Origin: Gammaproteobacteria bacterium
GTDB lineage: Bacteria; Pseudomonadota; Gammaproteobacteria; GRL18
Length of the DNA stretch: 64,000 nt
Assembly: GCA_016744995.1 (NCBI GenBank)
Contig: JADGDG010000004.1
Span: 62,001-126,000 of the forward strand
Direction: 5' to 3'
Shown piece by piece: positions 47,359 to 64,000 of the stretch. Under the pieces are notes generated by a model. That model was not told where the DNA came from and did no database searches. It saw only the letters and a list, made by a program, of their open reading frames with translations. Positions within the stretch are counted from its first letter, which is position 1. Each line of letters begins with the position of its first letter. A program made the position numbers and the translations under genes.

Positions 47359-48057
47359 TCACCCACACTTACTATCACCACAGCTCAGGCAGGTCATACA
47401 GCCATCCATCAGAACCAGTGCTTTGGTCTGGCACTTGCTGCAGAGTTGGGCTTGTTCTGGAAAATTATCCTCTTCGCTTGCATTATTTTGAGTTTTATTT
47501 TGTTCTTCAAACTCCTTACGTTTTTGCGCAATTAGTTTTTTCTGATGCTCATCCAGCTCACTGTCTTTGAGCATACCAATGAGTTTCATATGGGACTCAA
47601 TAGCACAACCGATCTCAGCAACCAGAGAGGGCATGAAGACTCCGCCTTTTTTAAAGTAACCACCCTTGGGATCAAACACAGCTTTAAGCTCTTCAACCAG
47701 AAAACAGGCATCGCCGCCTTTACGAAAGACCGCAGAAATAACCCGGGTCAGAGCAAGCACCCATTGAAAATGCTCCATATTTTTAGAGTTGATGAAGACT
47801 TCATAGGGACGGCGTTCTTCATGCGCTGTCCCCATGTTCAGCACCATATCGTTAATGGTAATATACAGTGCGTGTTCTGACTGAGGGGTTTTTATTTTGT
47901 AGGTTGAACCCAGAAGCATTTCCGGACGCTCAAGATTCTCGTGCATGCTTTCCACGTTATTGATCAGATCATCATTTGAAGATTCTGTGGGTTCTTTTTG
48001 ATTATCTTCTGTGAGTACTTTAAAGCCGACAATCTTGCTGTCTATTTTTATTGCCAT
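47359..48057 (-). CDS. nrdJb: B12-dependent ribonucleotide reductase, TSCPD subunit NrdJb
   Basis: 232 residues, similar in size to NrdJb of Pseudomonas. It is the split-off C-terminal part of class II ribonucleotide reductase, with a TSCPD domain (VLALTRVISAVFRKGGDACFLVEEL) and a Cys-rich tail (CSKCQTKALVLMDGCMTCLSCGDSKCG) that probably binds zinc or shuttles electrons. The ATG at 48057 is chosen because AAGG stands 9 nt upstream. It follows nrdJa by 84 bp. Confidence 0.9.
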   Translation of the reverse strand: MAIKIDSKIVGFKVLTEDNQKEPTESSNDDLINNVESMHENLERPEMLLGSTYKIKTPQSEHALYITINDMVLNMGTAHEERRPYEVFINSKNMEHFQWVLALTRVISAVFRKGGDACFLVEELKAVFDPKGGYFKKGGVFMPSLVAEIGCAIESHMKLIGMLKDSELDEHQKKLIAQKRKEFEEQNKTQNNASEEDNFPEQAQLCSKCQTKALVLMDGCMTCLSCGDSKCG

Positions 48058-48141
48058 GTTCATAAACCTTTTATTCCTGGAGTTGTTCTGATGTTAGGGT
48101 GTGTCTATTAAAATTTATCTCTTATGCCAAACAGGCCATTA

Positions 48142-50292
48142 TCAGAATTTGCCATAGTAACCTTCTTTAAGTGCATCAAATAAATTTGCAGCAGTATGCA
48201 TTTCACCGTCATATTCAACTTCTTCATTGCCTTTGAGACTGACCGTTTCACCATTTTCCAGAGAAAACTCATAGGTAGTATTTTCCAGATCAGATTCTTT
48301 AACTAAAACACCCTGGAAAACTTCCGGATTAAAACGGAAGGTGGTACAGCCTTTAAGACCTTTATCATAAGCGTATTCATAAATATCCTTAAAATCTTCA
48401 TAGGGATAATCAGTGGGTACATTAGCTGTTTTAGAAATGGAGGAATCAATCCATTTTTGAGCAGCAGCCTGAACATCGACATGCTGCTTCGGTGAAATGC
48501 TGTCAGCTGTAATGAAGTAATCCGGTAATTGTTCACCGGGATTGTCTGAATAAGGCATTGCATCAGCATTGACCATCTCGCGATAAGCCAGCAATTCAAA
48601 AGAAAAGACATCGACTTTCTCTTTAGTTTTTTTGCCTTCACGGATGACATTACGAGAATAGTGATGTGCAAAACTGGGTTCGATACCATTACTGGAATTA
48701 TTGGCCAGTGATAAAGAAATAGTACCAGTGGGTGCAATTGAACTGTGATGAGTGAAACGAGCGCCTGTTTCTATTAATTCTTCAACCAACTCAGGTTCTT
48801 CTTGTGCCAACAGCTGCATATAACGGCTGTATTTTGCATGCAGAACCTTTCCCGGCACCTTATCGCCATCTTTAAAGCCATCAGTGAGCATTTCAGGACG
48901 CTTGTGCAGCATCTCTCCAGTGACCGTAAACATCTGCTCCATAATTTTTGCAGGACCTTTTTCTTTGGCCAGATCAAGGCCAGCTTTCCAGCCTTCGACT
49001 GCCATCACTTTGGTGACTTCTTCAGTGAATGCCAAAGAGTTATCATCACCATATTTCATACCCATCATCGTACAGGATGAACCCAGACCTAAATAACCCA
49101 TACCGTGGCGACGCTTATTGGTGATCTCTTCGCGTTGTCTTTCCAGAGGCAGGCCATTAATTTCAACGACATTATCCAGCATGCGGGTAAAAACCTGGAT
49201 GGTTTTACGATAGCTGTCCCAGTCAAAAGAAGCTTCGCTGCTGAAGGGTTTAACAATGAAGCGGGTCAGATTGATGGAACCTAATAAACAACTGCCATAA
49301 GGGGGCAGAGGCTGTTCACCACATGGATTGGTAGCCCGAATGTTTTCGCAGAACCAGTTGTTATTCATCTCATTAACTTTATCAATAAGAATAAAGCCGG
49401 GCTCAGCATAGTCGTAGGTTGAAGACATGATAATATCCCACAAGCGCTTGGCCTGCAGGGTGCGTGTGACCCGACAGGCAACCAGACCGTCATTATTAAT
49501 GATATAGCCGTTTTTATCAGGCAGGTCACGCCAGATGATTTGCTCGGCATCATTTAAATCCAGTTCGTCCTGCTTGACTTCTTTTTCAGTAAGGGGGAAG
49601 GACAGCTTCCAGGGGCCGTCACTTTTAACTGCTTCAACAAACTCAGTAGTGATCAGCAGGGATAAATTAAACTGGCGTAAACGACCATCTTCTCGCTTTG
49701 CACGAATAAAATCGATGACATCCGGATGTCCAATGTCAAACGTGGCCATTTGGGCACCGCGACGACCACCCGCTGAGGAGACGGTAAAACACATCTTGTC
49801 ATAGATATCCATAAAGGAAAGCGGCCCGGAAGTATAAGCACCCGCACCGGAAACATAGGCATTCTTAGGGCGAAGTGTGGAAAACTCATAACCGATACCA
49901 CAACCTGCTTTAAGAGTCAGACCAGCTTCATGGACTTTATCCAGAATATCATCCATGGAATCTTCAATGGCTCCGGAGACAGTACAGTTAATGGTTGAGG
50001 TGGCGGGTTTGTGTGCCTGTGCACCGGCATTGGAGATAATACGACCGGCAGGGATCACACCCTGACGCAAAGCCCATAAAAATTCAGCATAATAACGCTC
50101 CTGATTTTTTTTACCTTTTTCAACATCAGAAAGTGCTTTTGCCACTCTCTTGTAAGTGTCATCAATATTAGCGTCAACTGCATCGCCATCTTTGGTTTTT
50201 AAACGATATTTAGTGTCCCAGATGTCCAAAGAAGCATCCTGCAACGGTATTTCTGTCACAGTGTTGGGTATGGCGTGTAATTGAGCAGTCAT
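48142..50292 (-). CDS. nrdJa: Adenosylcobalamin-dependent ribonucleotide reductase NrdJa
   Basis: 716-residue catalytic subunit that makes deoxyribonucleotides without oxygen dependence. Visible are GAIEDSMDDI, the active-site loop NPCGEQPLPPYGSCLLGSINLTRF and PTGTISLSLANNSSNGIEPSFA. Together with NrdJb it forms the split class II enzyme. The start at 50292 is preferred over a TTG at 50325. Two NrdR-like boxes stand upstream. Confidence 0.94.
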   Translation of the reverse strand: MTAQLHAIPNTVTEIPLQDASLDIWDTKYRLKTKDGDAVDANIDDTYKRVAKALSDVEKGKKNQERYYAEFLWALRQGVIPAGRIISNAGAQAHKPATSTINCTVSGAIEDSMDDILDKVHEAGLTLKAGCGIGYEFSTLRPKNAYVSGAGAYTSGPLSFMDIYDKMCFTVSSAGGRRGAQMATFDIGHPDVIDFIRAKREDGRLRQFNLSLLITTEFVEAVKSDGPWKLSFPLTEKEVKQDELDLNDAEQIIWRDLPDKNGYIINNDGLVACRVTRTLQAKRLWDIIMSSTYDYAEPGFILIDKVNEMNNNWFCENIRATNPCGEQPLPPYGSCLLGSINLTRFIVKPFSSEASFDWDSYRKTIQVFTRMLDNVVEINGLPLERQREEITNKRRHGMGYLGLGSSCTMMGMKYGDDNSLAFTEEVTKVMAVEGWKAGLDLAKEKGPAKIMEQMFTVTGEMLHKRPEMLTDGFKDGDKVPGKVLHAKYSRYMQLLAQEEPELVEELIETGARFTHHSSIAPTGTISLSLANNSSNGIEPSFAHHYSRNVIREGKKTKEKVDVFSFELLAYREMVNADAMPYSDNPGEQLPDYFITADSISPKQHVDVQAAAQKWIDSSISKTANVPTDYPYEDFKDIYEYAYDKGLKGCTTFRFNPEVFQGVLVKESDLENTTYEFSLENGETVSLKGNEEVEYDGEMHTAANLFDALKEGYYGKF

Positions 50293-50449
50293 TAATAAAA
50301 AATCCCCGGTTTGTATGGTTGACAAATGTAAGTGTCGGCAACTAAAGATAAAATGTTGTAAGTCGATTTAATCAGAGCTGTAACTAAATCTAAAGTGTTA
50401 CAAAACAATTCCCTGCTAACATCCTGAAAACTTTTGTTTTTTTATGTTT

Positions 50450-53595: not shown

Positions 53596-54564
53596 ATGAA
53601 AGATTTTTCACCCTCTGATCTAAAGGCAATCTTGCATTCCAAACGTGCCAATTTATATTATCTCGAACACTGTCGGGTTATGCAGAAAGATGGCAGGGTA
53701 CTTTATCTGACGGAAGAAAAAAAAGAAAAACAGTACTGGAACATTCCCATCGCCAATACCACCGTAATTTTATTGGGAACGGGCACCTCAATTACTCAGG
53801 CCGCAGTACGTATGCTTGCACAAGCTGGAGTTCTGATCGGTTTTTGTGGTGGCGGCGGCACACCGCTTTATATGAGTAATGAAATTGAGTGGGTGACCTC
53901 TCAAAGTGAATATCGCCCCACTCAATATTTGCAAGGCTGGTTATCATCATGGTTTGATGATGACTGGCGACTGCAAGCGGCGAAACAGTTTCAACATGCT
54001 CGCATGGAATACCTGAAACAGATCTGGACTAAAGATCGGGATTTAAAACAAGAAGGATTTAATACAGACGATGCAGGCCTTGAAGTAGCATTTAAACGCT
54101 TTAGTGAAAAAACAGATTTGGCCCAAAAACCATCTGCTCTGTTATTAACTGAAGCACAATTAACAAAAACACTCTACAAATTTGCTGCCAATCAAACCAA
54201 AATAGGGGATTTTACCCGCCAGCGAGAGGCCACAGATAAAGCCAATGCATTTTTAAATCATGGAAATTATCTGGCCTATGGTCTGGCGGCTACTACATTG
54301 TGGGTTTTAGGTATTCCTCATGGTTTTGCCGTCATGCATGGTAAAACCCGGCGTGGCGCATTGGTTTTTGATGTAGCTGATCTGATTAAAGATACCATCA
54401 TCCTACCCTGGGCCTTTGTGTGTGCTAAAGAAAATGCCACGGAACAGGAATTCCGTCAGCAATGCTTGCAGGCTTTTACCGATCATAAATCACTGGATTA
54501 TATGTTTGAGCAGGTTAAAGCTATCGCCCTGCAGGGGAAGACTGAGGAGGAAATCACCACATGA
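53596..54564 (+). CDS. cas1: CRISPR integrase Cas1 (type I-F)
   Basis: 322 residues. It inserts new spacers into the array together with Cas2 (here fused to Cas3). The active-site region is visible in GIPHGFAVMHGKTRRGALVFDVADLIKD, carrying the His and Asp ligands. The N-terminal YLEHCRVMQKDGRVLYL is typical of Cas1f. It overlaps cas2-3 by 4 bp. Confidence 0.96.
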   Translation: MKDFSPSDLKAILHSKRANLYYLEHCRVMQKDGRVLYLTEEKKEKQYWNIPIANTTVILLGTGTSITQAAVRMLAQAGVLIGFCGGGGTPLYMSNEIEWVTSQSEYRPTQYLQGWLSSWFDDDWRLQAAKQFQHARMEYLKQIWTKDRDLKQEGFNTDDAGLEVAFKRFSEKTDLAQKPSALLLTEAQLTKTLYKFAANQTKIGDFTRQREATDKANAFLNHGNYLAYGLAATTLWVLGIPHGFAVMHGKTRRGALVFDVADLIKDTIILPWAFVCAKENATEQEFRQQCLQAFTDHKSLDYMFEQVKAIALQGKTEEEITT

Positions 54565-57506
54565 TGGTTACCTTTATTTCCCAATGCGAAAAAAACGCCC
54601 TCAAGAAAACCCGCCGGGTACTGGATGCCTTCGCCAATCGCATTGGTGATAATGCCTGGCAAACGGTGATCACCAATGATGGTTTAAATACTGTTAAAAA
54701 AATGCTCAGGCAAACGGCTTCAAAAAATACAGCGGTTTCCTGTCACTGGATCAGGAGCCGTAGCCGATCGCAGTTTTTATGGGTGGTGGGTAATAAGGAT
54801 AAGTTTGATGGACAGGGTGTGGTGCCGGTGAATAGTACGCAGCAAGAAAATATATTACAAATGGATGAAATTAGTGTGGATATTAAAAAATATTACGCAA
54901 ATACAAAGAAGCAATCACTTGATCAGCATTTATTTGCAGTGGGTTATGTTGCTTATCGAATAATTAAACATTTTGTTGATGATGAAAAACTTGCAATGGC
55001 GGTATTTATCGCAGGTTGTCTGCATGATATTGGTAAGATTGATCCCGCTTTTCAAACTTGGATTATTGAAAAAGCAAAAAAGAAAATACTTGAAGAGCTG
55101 CCGGATGAAGGTGAGCATATTAAGAAGACAGGAAAATTTTCATTTGAAAAGCATCCCAGACATAATGAGATTTCAATGTTGCTGTATCATTTAATGGATG
55201 ATGATGACTATAAAAAAATAGTCAATAAAGAAAATAAAAAAAGAATAAAGCATGTACTCTATTGGCATCATGCAAAGCCCATTCGGAAATTAGAATTTAG
55301 GAAGCTTGATACAGTATATAAAAATTTGAAGAAAAATATTGGGCATTCAGAATTCTCTTCGATTACGGAGATATTTAAAAAAATTGTTGCAAGTGTAAAT
55401 TTAATTTCAAAGTCATATTTTTCTGACGAACCCTTATTACTCGAAGGTTTCCTGAATAAAGCAGATGAAGATAGAATTTATGAATTGGATGACACAAATT
55501 TGCCAACGTACAAGCGATATTCAGAATCTGATGATGATATTAGCGAATATTTGATATACATAAAAGAGAATGCAAAAAATAACCTTGCTCGCACTGCTGT
55601 AGTGACTGCAGATCGTTTAGTTTCAGCTCTGAGTAGTAAGGCATTAGATGATTATATAGAAGAATCAACACTAGATATTTTGTTTGAAACAGCTTTGTTA
55701 GAAGAACGTGGATTGAAGCGAGACTTAGAGTCCTGCATTGATAGGTTTATACAACGCTTTCCTGACAGTGAACGGAACAAGCAACAAGCTGAAGCTGTGC
55801 TAAATTTAGCAGAGAAAGAAGAGGGGCAAAGTGCTGTTAAAATTTTAAATGGGCCTGCTGGATGTGGTAAGACAAAAATTGCCTTGGAATGGGCTGCTAA
55901 AACTAATGCTAAAAAGATCATTTGGATTTGCCCACGAGTGCAAGTATGCCAAGGGTTAATCAATGACTTAACTGATTCTGATTATTTGCCTGATACTAAA
56001 ATTGAAATTAATACAGGTGAATTTAAATTGCTTTATCAATATGGGGATGATCCAGCTGAGACCCCTGAGGGAAAAGAATTTTCAGGTGATATTGTGATCA
56101 CAACGATAGATCAAATTACTAATTCCATTATCACTCATAATAGTGTAACTACCTTGGTTCATTATATGAATGCCCATGTAGTGTTTGATGAGTACCATGA
56201 ATATATCACCATGCCAGCGTTCAACTTATTTTTTGCCGAATTGGTAGAATGTAAAAAACTGCAAAAAGAAAAAGCAAATACTCTGCTCGTATCAGCTACT
56301 CCTAATTATTATTTTGTTGAAGAATTATTGGAAATTGATAGTGAAAATATCATTGGTACTGATAGTTTTAACCAGAGCCAATACAAAATTCAATTCACAG
56401 ACTTTGATGAGAGCAAGCAAGATGATACTAACCCCCTATATCAAGCTCTGTCAGATAATACTTTTGTTATTAGTAATACGGCAATAACGGCACAACAAAG
56501 CTTTATCAAGAATCAGAGCAGTGAGAATGCCATACTAATTCATTCAAAATTTAAGACTTCAGATAGAAAAGAACTCTTTGATCAAGTGTTTGATAGTTTT
56601 AAACGTGATGGAAGCAATAAATATCATGTATTGCGTGCGGGGCCGATTGTTCAGGCATCACTTAATATCACAAGTGATCAAATGATCACCGAGTTTACCA
56701 ATGCAGAAAATTGGTTGCAGCGCTTAGGGCGTCTGGATCGTTTTGGAGAAAACCAAAAGGTAAACTTATATGTCACTGCTGTACCAGAGACTATTTCAGA
56801 TACAGGGAAGCAAATAGGTGCTTGCGCCAGATTTCTAAGCCAGCTTCAGAGTTTTCAAAGTGCAAAAGTATGGCGTGAATTTTTATTGGATAAGCTATCA
56901 GAAGATACTGTAACGCTTACACAAATTTATCAGTGGTATCAAGATTTTTATGAGGATCAGAAATGCCGTGATGCTGTGGAACAAGATTTGATTAGTGCTT
57001 TAAAAAAGAGTGTTCAGGTCATTAGTAATAAATTAATTGATCCAATCTCATTTCCCAACAGAAAAAAACCTAAGGATAGTAAAGTAAAAATTTCAAAGAG
57101 TTCTTTACGCGGTGATAATCGCTTTGTACAAATGGCCCTATGCAACATAAATGGGCAAGGTAAACTTGATTTTCCAAATGACTATGCCTGTGAGGAAAAC
57201 AATATGGGAGGTAGTTTAACTGCTTCTGTAGAGCTTATTTGTGGCTATGGAGATAGTAAACAAGACTTATTGGGTTTCATGGTTAAAAAGCATCATAATA
57301 TTAAGGATGTGAAAAAATCTTATAAAGATAGCTTTACATTGAATGAAGCAAGAAACTTAGAAACCCCTATCTATTTGAGCTATATACCTGATGATCTGAA
57401 ACAGGTGAATGAAAGTCCACATTCTTATGCAATTTATTATGCAATAGGCAAGAAACAGCCTATTGGTGCAATCTCTATTAATAAACTAAAACCAGAGGAA
57501 GATTAA
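54561..57506 (+). CDS. cas2-3: Cas2-Cas3 fusion nuclease-helicase (type I-F)
   Basis: 981 residues. The N-terminal Cas2 domain covers about 1-95. The HD nuclease follows with [19 protein letters not shown] and VLYWHH. The helicase has Walker [10 protein letters not shown] (about 434), box II DEYH, motif [11 protein letters not shown] and motif [13 protein letters not shown]. It takes part in adaptation and shreds targets marked by the crRNA complex. The box II is DEYH rather than the more usual DExH with Val or Cys. All catalytic blocks look intact. Confidence 0.95.
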
Positions 57507-57507
57507 A

Positions 57508-58455
57508 ATGGAAAAAGTAACAGGAATAAAAAGTGTTGACTTCAAAATCAAAGCACTAGGACATGGTGTTGTGAACTGGAATGGACCAACAACTTTAACC
57601 GGAGATGGTGGTAAAACCGTAGATAACCATACTTTGCCAAAATTACGAGGTTACACAAATCTTACAGGAAAAGTGAAAGAAGATACGGGTTATCAATATA
57701 AAAAAGAAGCGACTGATATAGATTTTAAAAAAACACCATTGTATATCAGTCAAAACTGTATTCGCCATCACCTTTTTAGAGAGCAAGCTTTTGATATACA
57801 TTATGCAAAGAAGAATAATTTACAACAGATATTGGCTTCTATTACAGGTTTAATTCGTGGTTATGTTGTTCCTGCCAGTCAAAACAAACGCACCAGCCCA
57901 TTATTGATGGAAGATTTTGTTGATCAATTAGGAAATGGTAACTTTGAACAATTTGGTCAGGCAGGTGAACGTGATAGTTCTTCTTTCTTCTCAAAAACAA
58001 CATTTGGAGATACGGAGTACACTTCATATGGTTCAATAAGTATTGAACAACTACAGTTTATTGCACTGGATAAAAAATTTGATCGTGAAGCTATGGAAAT
58101 TAAAGAAGGGCAGGGAGAAGATGTTGCCCATGGTGTGCAAAACTTTATTCAGTCGCTCAATGAAGATTTAAATCCAGGTGCTACTTTCCATACCAATTAT
58201 GTGCGTAGAGGCACAATTTTTGAAGAAGGCGAAATGGGTATTTTATTGAATGATGATGCCATTAAAGCACTGGTTGAATATACTTTAGTACTTATTTCAG
58301 AACTATCCATACGACAAGCAAAATCTTATATGTATGTTGATGAAGTAACAGCTGATTATAATGATAGCAATAAAATGATGCGAATTAAACGTGATGAAAG
58401 TGATATCTCAGAACAGCCAGAGACAGGCTATGCCACTTATTTTTATTCTAAGTAG
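57508..58455 (+). CDS. cas7fv: Cas7fv backbone subunit of the I-F2 (I-Fv) complex
   Basis: 315 residues, starting [20 protein letters not shown]. This is the form of Cas7 found in the minimal Shewanella putrefaciens-type system rather than canonical Csy3: [25 protein letters not shown] and [23 protein letters not shown] are recognisable. It polymerises along the crRNA spacer. It starts 2 nt after cas2-3 and is followed by cas5fv. Confidence 0.88.
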
Positions 58456-58465
58456 GATGATGTTT

Positions 58466-59470
58466 ATGAAAATTTTAATAAAATATGAATCATCTTGGCG
58501 GAATTCATTTTTGGATGGTAGTAATAATAAACCATTACCAAAGAATGGCCGAAAATTTATTGGCTCAATGACCAATTTAAGAAAAGCTGAGAATTTCATA
58601 CAGCGTGAAGTGACGTTAGATACCATTATGGGAATTTTAAATCGTCTTATAGGTGATCAAAGAAAACTCTATCAAGCGAGAAATGAAAAAAATTATTTTT
58701 TCAAGGAAATTGAGTCACTAATTAAGTATAAAGATAGTCCATCTCATACAAATAGTGAGATGACCTATATCCGTAATATTACGGGTAGTACTGATCAAAA
58801 TTCATACACTGGTATGATTAAAATACATGATGAAATGTTTTCCTCAGATTATTCTCCTGAGCTTTGGGGAGTTCTTGCTTTGGATTTTGATGAATTATGT
58901 CAATTTATTATTGAAGATATTGATGTGAAAAAAGTGATTGAAATGAACCCATTGAGTATTATTTCAAGACTAGAAGAGCTGAATAAAGAAAAGCCTGTTT
59001 CTAATAATGGGCAAGCAAAAAAAGCAATGGATGAGCTGCATAAATTTCTTCCTGATATTACTTATCTAAATAAAAAAGAGGAGATTGTTCCCATCAGCCT
59101 ATATTGTTCAGGGTTATATTTGCAGTTAGAACGACTAACAAAAAATTTTGATATGAGTTCTGCAAAAACAAAAAGTGGAGCCATCAGTGGTATTTCAAAG
59201 CGGGGCTTTACTAAAAAGGATTTTATGAATCGATTCACTTCGGGTGAAAAGAAAAAAATCTGGGGAAACCCCTATATTCGTAAAGAAAGAATCAAAGGTG
59301 TTGGTGAGGTGACTTCCCTATTAACTAAGGCAAGTGGTACTTTAGAAGTAGATATTCCAGTAGAAAGAACAAAGGGAAAAGAAATTAAAAGTATGATTGA
59401 GTGTGCAGGTGTTTCCAGTTTTTACTTAGGTAAAAAAGGACTTGCCTATGTCTTAAAAATTCGTGTTTAA
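58466..59470 (+). CDS. cas5fv: Cas5fv subunit of the I-F2 (I-Fv) complex
   Basis: 334 residues. [21 protein letters not shown] is the typical start; the frame is open further upstream, but AGGA lies 8 nt before the ATG at 58466. In the characterised I-Fv complex Cas5fv carries an added helical domain that reads the PAM and replaces the large subunit; the middle part here (about 90-220) is helical and could be that domain. No cas8f is present. Confidence 0.87.
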
Positions 59471-59483
59471 ATCTGGAGTAATT

Positions 59484-60035
59484 ATGGATCATTATATAGA
59501 TATACAAATTAAGCCTGATGCTGAAATGCGTGAAAATGTATTACTCAATAAAGTTTATACCAAATTTCATAAGGCTTTATTTTTCTTAAAATCAACGGAT
59601 ATTGGTATTAGTTTTCCTAGGTACAAAGTATTACTGGGAAATATTGTTCGCATACATGGCACTGAAAGCAGGTTGTTGGAATTACAAAATACAAATTGGT
59701 TAGGTGGTTTGTCAGGTTACTGTAAAATGGCAAAAATACAAGCAATACCTAATGATGTGAGTTATCGTACTATCTCTCGTAAACAAGCAAATATGACTAT
59801 GGCAAAGCTTAGGCGTTTACTCAAACGAGGCTCAATCTCTGTTCAAGAAGCCAAGAAATATAAGGCCAAAATGCATACTCAGAGCTTAGATAATCCTTTC
59901 TTTGAACTGAATAGTACATCAAATGGTAATACTCATCGACGCTATATTGAATTTGGTGAATTTCAGAATTTTCCTGCAATGGGTAAATTTGATTTTTTTG
60001 GTTTAAGCAAACAAGCAACAGTTCCCTGGTTTTAG
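59484..60035 (+). CDS. cas6f: CRISPR RNA endonuclease Cas6f (Csy4)
   Basis: 183 residues from the ATG at 59484, which has GGAG upstream. It cuts the repeat hairpin to release crRNAs with the 8-nt handle. The catalytic His is at residue 29 (VYTKFHKAL), the same position as in Csy4. A basic arginine-rich helix (MAKLRRLLKRGS) that could grip the hairpin follows at about 106. The C-terminal GKFDFFGLSKQATVPWF is typical. Confidence 0.93.
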   Translation: MDHYIDIQIKPDAEMRENVLLNKVYTKFHKALFFLKSTDIGISFPRYKVLLGNIVRIHGTESRLLELQNTNWLGGLSGYCKMAKIQAIPNDVSYRTISRKQANMTMAKLRRLLKRGSISVQEAKKYKAKMHTQSLDNPFFELNSTSNGNTHRRYIEFGEFQNFPAMGKFDFFGLSKQATVPWF

Positions 60036-60101
60036 GTTCTAATAAAAAAATGGAGTAATAATAAAGCTAAAAAATAGAAAAGTTCAGATGTCCTTTTTAG
60101 A

Positions 60102-60301
60102 AATTGGCTGTGTAACCGTATTATTATAGAATTTCTTGGTATTCGGGAGCAGTTACATAATCCAGGTTTTAAAGTCATTGAATTAATGACTTTAAAAAAG
60201 GTGTTGGGCTTAGCAATTTTGTCTTGAATTTTCCAGCTGGATCTCTGCTGAGTTTGAGCTTTGATCTGATTAAAGAATTTCAATGTCTGAAAGAGCAATA
60301 G
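60102..60301 (+). pseudogene. Decayed KilA-N domain gene
   Basis: Between cas6f and the array, the frame from 60102 reads NWLCNRIIIEFLGIREQLHN then PGFKVIE, the centre of a KilA-N domain. After a stop and a deletion, SWISAEFEL and then (one frame on) LIKEFQCLKEQ give its end. Frameshifts and a missing middle show it is dead. KilA-N proteins are mostly phage or mobile-element proteins. Confidence 0.6.
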
Positions 60302-60643
60302 CTCAAATAGCTTGGGTGAGGTATTAAATCTAATCTGGCAAGATGATTTTTTTCGGTTTTAAATCATAAGTTTAACTTTGTTTAATTCATTCTGATGCTA
60401 TCAAAGAAAATCTTATTCCTTATTCTCCAATATTTCAGAAAGTTAGTTAGCTCTCAAATAATAGAAGGTGCTTGTATGTAATAACATCATTAATCACCTG
60501 AGAATTAAAAAAACCAATAATTTTTGCTCTTTAACAATTTGCTTAGTTATTAATAAGTTACAACATAGATGAAAATGATAGGTAAAATTGCCTAAAATTA
60601 GCTATCTAATTGTTGTAACTTGTTTTTTTGCTGTTAGACTGTA
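60302..60643 (+). promoter_or_regulatory. CRISPR leader
   Basis: AT-rich, non-coding, ending at the first repeat. It contains an exact boxA (60525-60536), an 11-bp inverted repeat (AAGTTACAACA at 60555-60565, TGTTGTAACTT at 60611-60621) and an inner near-palindrome TAGGTAAAATTGCCTA (60579-60594). The leader is on the cas6f side, so new spacers enter at 60644. No confident IHF site was found by eye. Confidence 0.75.
60525..60536 (+). promoter_or_regulatory. boxA antitermination site in the CRISPR leader
   Basis: TGCTCTTTAACA, followed by ATTT, is identical to the boxA of E. coli rRNA leaders. It lies 107 nt upstream of the first repeat in the direction of transcription. NusB/NusE/SuhB binding here would protect the long array transcript from Rho. 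Confidence 0.75.
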
Positions 60644-63600
60644 GTTCACTGCCGTACAGGCAGCTTAGAAAGTCTTGGTAGATAGATTTGGGTATGACTG
60701 AAAGTTCACTGCCGTACAGGCAGCTTAGAAATGTTTCTTCTGGTCTAAAGTTTTCAAACATACGTTCACTGCCGTACAGGCAGCTTAGAAAATTGATTGA
60801 AATATTCAACGCTTCACTCGCCAGTTCACTGCCGTACAGGCAGCTTAGAAATAATTGAAGCGTTACTGTGTGGTGGTCTTAGTGTTCACTGCCGTACAGG
60901 CAGCTTAGAAAAGCCCCGTACTTAACCCCAATTTTTTCGAACAGTTCACTGCCGTACAGGCAGCTTAGAAATATTAATGCAAGATGCGCAGATAGCAGTC
61001 ACGGTTCACTGCCGTACAGGCAGCTTAGAAAATAAGATTTTCCTGTTCCAGTCAGACCTGAATGTTCACTGCCGTACAGGCAGCTTAGAAATCTATAGCC
61101 AGCATGAGACGAAAATTTCTTTAGTTCACTGCCGTACAGGCAGCTTAGAAATATTAGGCCATGACACAATTACTAAAAATATAGTTCACTGCCGTACAGG
61201 CAGCTTAGAAAGTAATCGCGATGAAACATCCTTCTGGGCAAACGTTCACTGCCGTACAGGCAGCTTAGAAAAGTGATTAAACGTAACATTGCTGGCCTCT
61301 ATAGTTCACTGCCGTACAGGCAGCTTAGAAAATTATTATTACCACCGCCACCCGGATTACCACGTTCACTGCCGTACAGGCAGCTTAGAAAATTTGATAT
61401 AACACAAATTGACCCGTTAATTGGTTCACTGCCGTACAGGCAGCTTAGAAAATCAAAATCGTATAATCTATCTTCAATTAATTGTTCACTGCCGTACAGG
61501 CAGCTTAGAAAAACAAGAAACATCATTTACATTCACATTAAACGTTCACTGCCGTACAGGCAGCTTAGAAATGATTAGGTTGCGCAGCACCAACTGAATT
61601 TAAGTTCACTGCCGTACAGGCAGCTTAGAAAGCTATTTTATCGATTTCTGATAACGTTAAATCGTTCACTGCCGTACAGGCAGCTTAGAAAATCAACGCA
61701 TTGGGCGTTAGAAAGCACATCCCGTTCACTGCCGTACAGGCAGCTTAGAAATTCAATTTCACCAATGAATCCAGTAAGACGTTGTTCACTGCCGTACAGG
61801 CAGCTTAGAAAGGTATTTCTGTTGGTAAAAGTATATACCTTGAGTTCACTGCCGTACAGGCAGCTTAGAAATATATGTGATAACGTGGGATCCTTCCTGC
61901 TCAGTTCACTGCCGTACAGGCAGCTTAGAAAAGCACGGTGTCAACAAAGCCACTCACTTGACTGTTCACTGCCGTACAGGCAGCTTAGAAATGATCCTAC
62001 ATTTGGTTTTTTAAACTATGTTGGTTCACTGCCGTACAGGCAGCTTAGAAATTTGATTATTGACTTAAAATCATTAGGCACAGGTTCACTGCCGTACAGG
62101 CAGCTTAGAAAGTTATCTTGGGTGATTGTTGAGTTTGGTGTTAATTCACTGCCGTACAGGCAGCTTAGAAAATCATTTCCCCCTCCACCACCATCGTTCC
62201 CACGTTCACTGCCGTACAGGCAGCTTAGAAAAAAAAACCAAACAAAGTAAAATAAACAATTAAGTTCACTGCCGTACAGGCAGCTTAGAAATTTTGATGG
62301 TTCGGGTGCTGACGCCCAGTGTTGTTCACTGCCGTACAGGCAGCTTAGAAACTCTAATAAATTATTAAAGAGCTTGAAACCTTGTTCACTGCCGTACAGG
62401 CAGCTTAGAAAAATTAGAAGCCGACCTTTCATATTCCATTTTAGTTCACTGCCGTACAGGCAGCTTAGAAAAAGACCCGCCGCTTTTCTGACTAGCATTC
62501 CCCGTTCACTGCCGTACAGGCAGCTTAGAAAATTGGGCGTATCACTGCAGTGAATAATAATTTGTTCACTGCCGTACAGGCAGCTTAGAAAATTCACAAC
62601 CTGCGGCACATACGACAAAATGAGTTCACTGCCGTACAGGCAGCTTAGAAATTCGGGTATTATGTATGGCTTGTTCGCTGGCAGTTCACTGCCGTACAGG
62701 CAGCTTAGAAAAGAATGAATGTGTGTCCATTTTGTTTGTATAAGTTCACTGCCGTACAGGCAGCTTAGAAATCCTACAGAAAAAATCCCTCCTCCTACAG
62801 AAAGTTCACTGCCGTACAGGCAGCTTAGAAATTCCTTTCTTAAGCAAAACATGACTGTATCTTGTTCACTGCCGTACAGGCAGCTTAGAAACGAATAGAA
62901 TAAAGCGTCCATCAGGTGGGGTTGTTCACTGCCGTACAGGCAGCTTAGAAAATCTGTAAAATCACCGTCACCGATAGTTACCAGTTCACTGCCGTACAGG
63001 CAGCTTAGAAAGTCGACTTGGCGCGGGCTTGTAATGTTATTAAGTTCACTGCCGTACAGGCAGCTTAGAAAATCATTTCTAATTTAGTCGTAGTGAATTT
63101 AATGTTCACTGCCGTACAGGCAGCTTAGAAATACTGATAATATTATTTTTCCGTCAGCCATTAGTTCACTGCCGTACAGGCAGCTTAGAAATCTGTAACC
63201 TGCATGAGACGAGAATTTTTTTAGTTCACTGCCGTACAGGCAGCTTAGAAAGTCAAGCCAAAACTCAACACCTCGATTATCTTGTTCACTGCCGTACAGG
63301 CAGCTTAGAAATTGCGCCAAATCCGCCAATTCACTCATCAACCGTTCACTGCCGTACAGGCAGCTTAGAAACGTATTTAGATTCAGATGACAATCCCACA
63401 ATCGTTCACTGCCGTACAGGCAGCTTAGAAAAGTTCAGCACTGGGCGTCAGCACCCGAACCATGTTCACTGCCGTACAGGCAGCTTAGAAAAAATAGAAC
63501 AACGGTTAACGTTGGTGGCTTTAGTTCACTGCCGTACAGGCAGCTTAGAAAATTAATTGAAATATTCAATGCTTCACTTGCTAGTTCACTGCCGTACAGG

Positions 63601-64000
63601 CAGCTTAGAAATTTGACGCTAAAGAAGCGGCCGCAGGTATAAAGTTCACTGCCGTACAGGCAGCTTAGAAAATATTCGCCACATCACCCAAAGCGTTTAA
63701 TATGTTCACTGCCGTACAGGCAGCTTAGAAATATTTCCTTGGATTTAATGCTGCAGGTGATGAGTTCACTGCCGTACAGGCAGCTTAGAAATTAAAAGTG
63801 GTTGTTCGTCTTGCATTTAATGCGTTCACTGCCGTACAGGCAGCTTAGAAAATTTTATTTAGCTCGTTAATTGCCCGAATAACGTTCACTGCCGTACAGG
63901 CAGCTTAGAAATTTAGCGACAACTTTGTACGTATTATATGCCCGTTCACTGCCGTACAGGCAGCTTAGAAACGTAGTTGGGGGCCGGGGATCGACAAAAT
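60644..64000 (+). CRISPR. Type I-F CRISPR array, at least 56 repeats, continuing past the window
   Basis: The 28-nt repeat is GTTCA, then hairpin CTGCC-GTACA-GGCAG, then CTTAGAAA. The last eight bases become the crRNA 5' handle, so transcription is on the plus strand. Repeats start at 60644 and then every 60 bp to 63944: 56 repeats, 55 complete spacers of exactly 32 nt and one partial. All repeats look identical except the 26th (62144), whose first base is A. The distal end is not seen. Confidence 0.99.

What the first reader, a model, noticed from the sequence alone, without database searches (positions are those of the whole stretch)
61092..63223. Spacers 8 and 43: second synonymous-only spacer pair
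Spacers at 61092-61123 and 63192-63223 align in register with five differences at positions 4, 7, 10, 22 and 28, all in the same codon phase. Both reverse strands encode KKFSSHAGYR. Two independent pairs of this kind make chance implausible and point to a long contest with one conserved phage lineage.
Basis: seen in the sequence. Interest (0 to 1): 0.75.

Follow-up and report, generated by a model that had tools for sequence, protein, structure and literature searches.

The report
CRISPR spacers recording synonymous phage variants
A bacterium's CRISPR memory array stored the same 32-base piece of what is probably a virus gene twice, on separate occasions, from two variants that differ only at silent codon positions; the pattern is real and records past infections, but this behaviour is known and the virus itself could not be found.

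Summary
Spacers 8 (61092-61123) and 43 (63192-63223) of a type I-Fv CRISPR array align in register with five differences at positions 4, 7, 10, 22 and 28, all third codon positions of one reverse-strand frame, KKFSSHAGYR. Similarity (27/32) exceeds the maximum of 1000 dinucleotide-shuffled arrays (24/32); a fully synonymous pattern in any open frame has Monte Carlo P about 0.004. Pair 3/49 behaves likewise (P about 0.018), though its coding strand is ambiguous. I found a third pair, 28/47: opposite strands, 27-bp overlap, one difference, silent in a DUF551-like frame (HWASAPEP).

Best explanation: independent acquisition, at different times, of the same site from diverged relatives of one conserved phage gene. 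Array duplication followed by drift is rejected. The "one phage lineage" claim is plausible (older members cluster at spacers 43-49) but unproven: no protospacer was found in the phage, viral, plasmid or genome collections searched. A weak in-frame 18-bp match suggests that KKFSSHAGYR lies in a beta-helix tail-spike gene. At least one other I-Fv array contains similar pairs, and published Legionella work describes the same older-mismatched/newer-matched pattern. Real and informative, but a known kind.

The parts
53596..54564 (+). cas1 of type I-Fv
   Evidence: PADLOC Cas1fv 4e-180, NCBIfam Cas1f
54561..57506 (+). cas2-3 fusion (Cas3fv)
   Evidence: PADLOC Cas3fv over residues 1-977, 1382 bits
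57508..58455 (+). cas7fv
   Evidence: NCBIfam NF040577 3e-146; PADLOC Cas7fv
58391..59470 (+). cas5fv (the match begins at residue 26 of this ORF, so the true start is probably downstream of 58391)
   Evidence: PADLOC Cas5fv 4e-155
59463..60035 (+). cas6f (csy4)
   Evidence: TIGR02563 1.5e-51
60036..60643 (+). A+T-rich stretch between cas6f and the first repeat; contains the probable leader, so spacer 1 is newest
   Evidence: sequence; the far end of the array has the degenerate terminal repeat
60644..64000 (+). CRISPR array, 28-bp repeats and 32-bp spacers; continues past the window to 94 spacers (G000:C23:122644-128311)
60792..60823 (+). spacer 3, newer member of pair 3/49
61092..61123 (+). 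spacer 8, newer member of the pair in question; reverse strand KKFSSHAGYR
62292..62323 (+). spacer 28, newer member of antisense pair 28/47; reverse strand HWASAPEPSK, DUF551-like
63192..63223 (+). spacer 43, older member of the pair in question; reverse strand KKFSSHAGYR
63432..63463 (+). spacer 47, older member of pair 28/47; forward strand VQHWASAPEP
63552..63583 (+). spacer 49, older member of pair 3/49

Best explanation
A type I-Fv CRISPR-Cas system acquired the same protospacer position twice, at different times, from two diverged relatives of one protein-coding mobile element, almost certainly a phage. Purifying selection kept the peptide KKFSSHAGYR while third codon positions drifted, so the spacers differ only at silent sites. 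The older spacer (43) has seed-region mismatches (positions 4 and 7) to the newer allele, so it would be expected to cut that variant poorly while perhaps still priming; a fresh exact spacer (8) then restored protection. Shown: array type, order of spacers, in-register identity, silent-only differences, two further similar pairs. Inferred: phage origin, time order from leader polarity, loss of interference, same lineage for all pairs. Speculative: that priming drove the re-acquisition.
For: Exact coordinates and differences. One open synonymous frame, MC P 0.004; identity 27/32 against a shuffle maximum of 24/32. Pair 3/49 and antisense pair 28/47 show the same silent pattern. Complete I-Fv cas operon with cas1 and cas3; 94 spacers all 32 nt and a degenerate distal repeat give the polarity. 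First spacer base A or T in 75 of 94, C in 7, as reported for type I-F acquisition (PMC5059440). Phage-like targets elsewhere in the array: spacer 44 matches a Vibrio phage X29 tail-fibre-assembly gene (26/27, DNRGVEFWLD vs DNRGVEYWLP); 28/47 resembles X29 DUF551. Spacer 43 bases 1-18 match a pectin-lyase-fold protein of Vibrio phage 1.148.O in the predicted strand and frame (SHAGYR), and AGYRI.G.AL..SCNG.D is conserved in Pseudoalteromonas phage HP1. Comparable silent pairs occur in another array, L062.
Against: No protospacer was found, so neither the phage origin of this pair nor its PAM is shown. The tail-spike match has E about 0.9 and could be chance; only 6 of 10 residues agree. Under uniform sampling of GG/CC sites in one 40-100 kb phage, two exact repeats are more than expected (0.01-0.8), so some unevenness (hot spots, priming, a smaller element or several related elements) is needed.
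Confidence: 0.92

Rival explanations
1. The pairs come from conserved genes shared by several unrelated mobile elements (mosaic phages, plasmids, satellites), not from one phage lineage. The array then records repeated contact with the genes, not a long contest with one phage.
For: No protospacer was found to tie the pairs together. Tail-spike and DUF551 genes are typical mosaic phage genes (general knowledge); the spacer targets that could be guessed resemble different known phages (X29, 1.148.O, HP1).
Against: Older members of three different pairs cluster at spacers 43-49, easier to explain if one phage carried all three genes in each episode.
Confidence: 0.35
2. Primed re-acquisition (a mechanism within the best explanation): the mismatched old spacer 43 recognised the escaped variant, recruited Cas2-3/Cas1 and caused capture of new spacers, one of which was the escaped site itself.
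For: All three older spacers mismatch the newer allele inside the type I-F seed as known from other systems (positions 4 and 7; 4; 7). The overlapping opposite-strand pair 28/47 fits two-stranded type I-F acquisition near a primed site (PMC5059440). Rao et al. 2016 proposed this for Legionella pairs (PMC5071653).
Against: Seed mismatches are expected anyway for four or five third-position changes (about 0.8-0.9 per pair, own arithmetic). Priming predicts clusters near the site rather than the same site, and flanking protospacers cannot be mapped.
Confidence: 0.35
3. One spacer is a copy of the other made by array duplication or recombination and later changed by mutation in the bacterial genome.
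For: Exact spacer duplications occur in other I-Fv arrays.
Against: Neighbouring spacers are not duplicated, repeats around them are unchanged, and drift inside a non-coding array would not confine all nine differences of two pairs to one codon phase and silent changes.
Confidence: 0.02
4. Chance similarity between unrelated spacers.
For: None beyond the large number of pairs compared (4371).
Against: Observed 27 and 28 of 32 in register; best of 1000 shuffled arrays 24 of 32.
Confidence: 0.01

Closest known systems
Overlapping old/new spacer pairs against the mobile element LME-1 in Legionella pneumophila Toronto-2005 (type I-C; Rao et al. 2016, PMC5071653)
   Same: Two spacers in one array hit overlapping target sites; [quoted passage not shown] interpreted as escape followed by primed re-acquisition.
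   Different: There the element is sequenced, and escape from interference was tested for other protospacers of it; here the element is unknown, the subtype is I-Fv, the sites are identical in register, and the differences are all silent.
Type I-Fv (I-F2) CRISPR-Cas of Shewanella putrefaciens CN-32 and Vibrio cholerae (PMC7266957, PMC6360697)
   Same: Same five genes cas1, cas2-3, cas7fv, cas5fv, cas6f and no cas8f; 32-nt spacers.
   Different: Different host; this array has 94 spacers. PAM not verified here.
Silent spacer pairs in the I-Fv array of Methylococcaceae bacterium LH_M36 (locus L062)
   Same: In-register pair with 3 differences, same peptide in frame (NRIHAEPIMQ), and an antisense full-length overlap with 8 differences, all silent (KLLHTGVRTL).
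   Different: Different organism and target; found here by survey, not described in the papers read.

Membership tests
Type I-Fv (I-F2) CRISPR-Cas | cas1, cas2-3, cas7fv, cas5fv, cas6f operon | tested here: met
Type I-Fv (I-F2) CRISPR-Cas | no large subunit (Cas8f) | tested here: met
   the five ORFs are contiguous from 53596 to 60035 and each is assigned to another Cas protein
Type I-Fv (I-F2) CRISPR-Cas | 28-bp I-F repeat and 32-nt spacers | tested here: met
   94 spacers, all 32 nt
Type I-Fv (I-F2) CRISPR-Cas | GG PAM on the target strand (CC 5' of protospacer) | not testable with these tools
   no true protospacer found; the X29 relative of spacer 44 has TC there but is not the source
Re-acquisition of a diverged protospacer (Rao et al. 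2016 type) | two spacers on the same or overlapping target site, diverged | tested here: met
   three pairs, by sequence alone
Re-acquisition of a diverged protospacer (Rao et al. 2016 type) | differences follow selection on a coding sequence, so the two members come from two element variants | tested here: met
   MC P 0.004 and 0.018
Re-acquisition of a diverged protospacer (Rao et al. 2016 type) | older spacer mismatched in the seed to the newer allele | tested here: met
   positions 4 and 7; 4; 7; the I-F seed definition is general knowledge and was not determined for I-Fv in the papers read
Re-acquisition of a diverged protospacer (Rao et al. 2016 type) | newer spacer matches a sequenced element perfectly | tested here: inconclusive
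   no protospacer in any collection searched; the element may simply be unsequenced

The most novel reading that the evidence does not exclude
Silent-only pairs are common enough in I-Fv arrays to show that these systems preferentially recapture the very site that escaped, and such pairs allow the reading frame and protein of an unsampled phage gene, and its silent divergence, to be read from the array alone.
Probability: 0.2. Interest if true: 0.5.

Novelty: new member of a known kind. Interest (0 to 1): 0.32.

Why it matters
Silent-only spacer pairs identify, without any phage sequence, the likely coding strand and frame of a targeted gene and show that one host lineage met diverged relatives of the same gene at different times. 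A survey of such pairs could test whether type I systems update old memories at the same site. As a single case it is an ordinary consequence of CRISPR adaptation.

Tried and rejected
Degenerate-codon searches for KKFSSHAGYR: IMG/VR 0, genome contigs 0, own genome only the array, 96 relatives 0, 369 class genomes with 1 mismatch 0. Relaxed FSSHAGYR gave two IMG/VR hits with stop codons close by in that frame. ASEALNISIN gave one hit, L001, judged chance: the peptide there is ATEALNIRIN with stops soon after. LIEIFNASLA 0. QHWASAPEP 0. blastn of spacers 8, 43, 47, 49 against phages gave only the 18-bp tail-protein match and short chance-level matches. The whole array against phages gave X29 for spacer 44. 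Against plasmids, the top rows were array-like matches without annotated genes, as expected from the repeats. Array against the genus: other arrays and chance-level matches. DUF551 in the genus: nothing over the cut-off. The tail-spike family could not be extended in IMG/VR or the host family. Array duplication and chance were rejected (see rivals).

Full report
Observation. The window ends inside a CRISPR array whose repeat is GTTCACTGCCGTACAGGCAGCTTAGAAA, with 60-bp spacing. I extracted all spacers and, from the genome contig, the rest of the array: 94 spacers, every one 32 nt, with the degenerate repeat at the far end. The A+T-rich probable leader lies next to cas6f, so low spacer numbers are the newest. 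Of six frames, only reverse frame 2 is open in both and identical: KKFSSHAGYR.

Chance. Among 4371 pairs the best in-register identities are 28 (3/49), 27 (8/43) and then 20 of 32; 1000 dinucleotide-shuffled arrays never exceeded 24. Placing the same substitutions at random gives an all-synonymous result in some open frame in 0.4% of trials for 8/43 and 1.8% for 3/49. Pair 3/49 is synonymous on both strands (LIEIFNASLA or ASEALNISIN), so its coding strand is not settled.

A third pair. Spacers 28 and 47 overlap by 27 bp on opposite strands with one difference. It is silent in the frame H-W-A-S-A-P-E-P (and also in the opposite-strand frame GSGADAQC). The first frame resembles part of the DUF551 protein of Vibrio phage X29 (VTHWMPMPDPVK). 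A single difference is not evidence of selection by itself. The older members 43, 47 and 49 lie within seven spacers, and all six members are in the newer half (P about 0.03 and 0.02 under random placement; post hoc).

System. The operon is a complete type I-Fv set: Cas1fv, Cas3fv (with the Cas2 part), Cas7fv, Cas5fv, Cas6f, no Cas8f. The first spacer base is A or T in 75 of 94 and C in 7, the bias reported for type I-F acquisition (PMC5059440). The nearest named relative, MAG Gammaproteobacteria bacterium BB36, has 97.5% identical DNA over most of the cas genes, but its contig stops before the array.

Target. No protospacer was found for either pair. Other spacers look phage-derived: spacer 44 matches the X29 tail-fibre-assembly gene (DNRGVEFWLD against DNRGVEYWLP). 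For the pair in question there is one lead: bases 1-18 of spacer 43 match a pectin-lyase-fold protein of Vibrio phage 1.148.O, E 0.9, but in exactly the predicted strand and frame (SHAGYR). In the related protein of Pseudoalteromonas phage HP1 the core AGYRI.G.AL..SCNG.D is conserved. I regard a beta-helix tail spike as the likeliest target gene, at about 50%.

Mechanism. Silent-only divergence at one fixed position requires two diverged copies of a gene under purifying selection. Duplication plus drift within the array cannot give that pattern. Hence two independent acquisitions. The older spacers mismatch the newer alleles at seed positions 4 and 7, 4, and 7, so by general type I-F knowledge they would be weakened against the newer variant; but such seed mismatches are expected for most such pairs, so they do not prove escape or priming. 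Under uniform sampling of one phage, exact repeats of a site are rather unlikely (0.01 to 0.8 expected), which points to hot spots, priming or several related elements.

Generality and precedent. In a survey of 52 arrays around related cas7fv genes and in the genus (an undercount, since it recovered only 62 of the 94 spacers here), other diverged same-site pairs appear. In L062 (Methylococcaceae LH_M36), one pair has three differences, none changing the peptide in the frame NRIHAEPIMQ (one lies outside complete codons), and one antisense full-length pair has eight differences, all silent in KLLHTGVRTL (3 of 100000 random placements). Small pairs in L083 and L095 are not informative, and the L083 pair is not silent in any open frame. 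The same kind of old-mismatched/new-matched pair was described in Legionella (PMC5071653).

Verdict. A known kind of event in a known subtype.

Noticed in passing
window 62292-62323 and 63432-63463: Spacers 28 and 47 overlap on opposite strands by 27 bp with one difference, probably in a DUF551-like phage gene; spacer 18 (61692-61723, THWALESTS in one frame) may be a more distant DUF551-like target.
   Followed up: partly
window 63252-63283: Spacer 44 encodes DNRGVEFWLD, close to the tail-fibre-assembly gene of Vibrio phages X29, phi 2 and Rostov 7 (26 of 27 bp).
   Followed up: partly
window 61332-61363 and 62172-62203: Spacers 12 and 26 both encode glycine-rich peptides on the reverse strand (GNPGGGGNN, GNDGGGGGND), perhaps tail-fibre loops.
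   Followed up: no
L062 (Methylococcaceae bacterium LH_M36): Its I-Fv array holds several diverged same-site pairs, one antisense with eight silent differences (KLLHTGVRTL, integrase-like by eye).
   Followed up: partly
G000:C23 126484-128131: Distal repeats carry a shared T-to-C change (GTTCACTGCCGCACAGG...) over a run of 28 repeats, after which the oldest repeats have T again, so array growth may be dated by repeat variants.
   Followed up: no
window 53596-58915 against L032: The cas genes are 97.5% identical to MAG BB36 while flanking genes are 84-91% identical, hinting at recent exchange of the cas operon.
   Followed up: no
G000:C35:252330-252359: The spacer 14 region has a 90% match over 30 bp elsewhere in its own genome (E 0.007): possible self-target or A+T-rich chance.
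   Followed up: no
window 47359-50325: The B12-dependent ribonucleotide reductase is split into two ORFs, the smaller matching the C-terminal part of the family.
   Followed up: no
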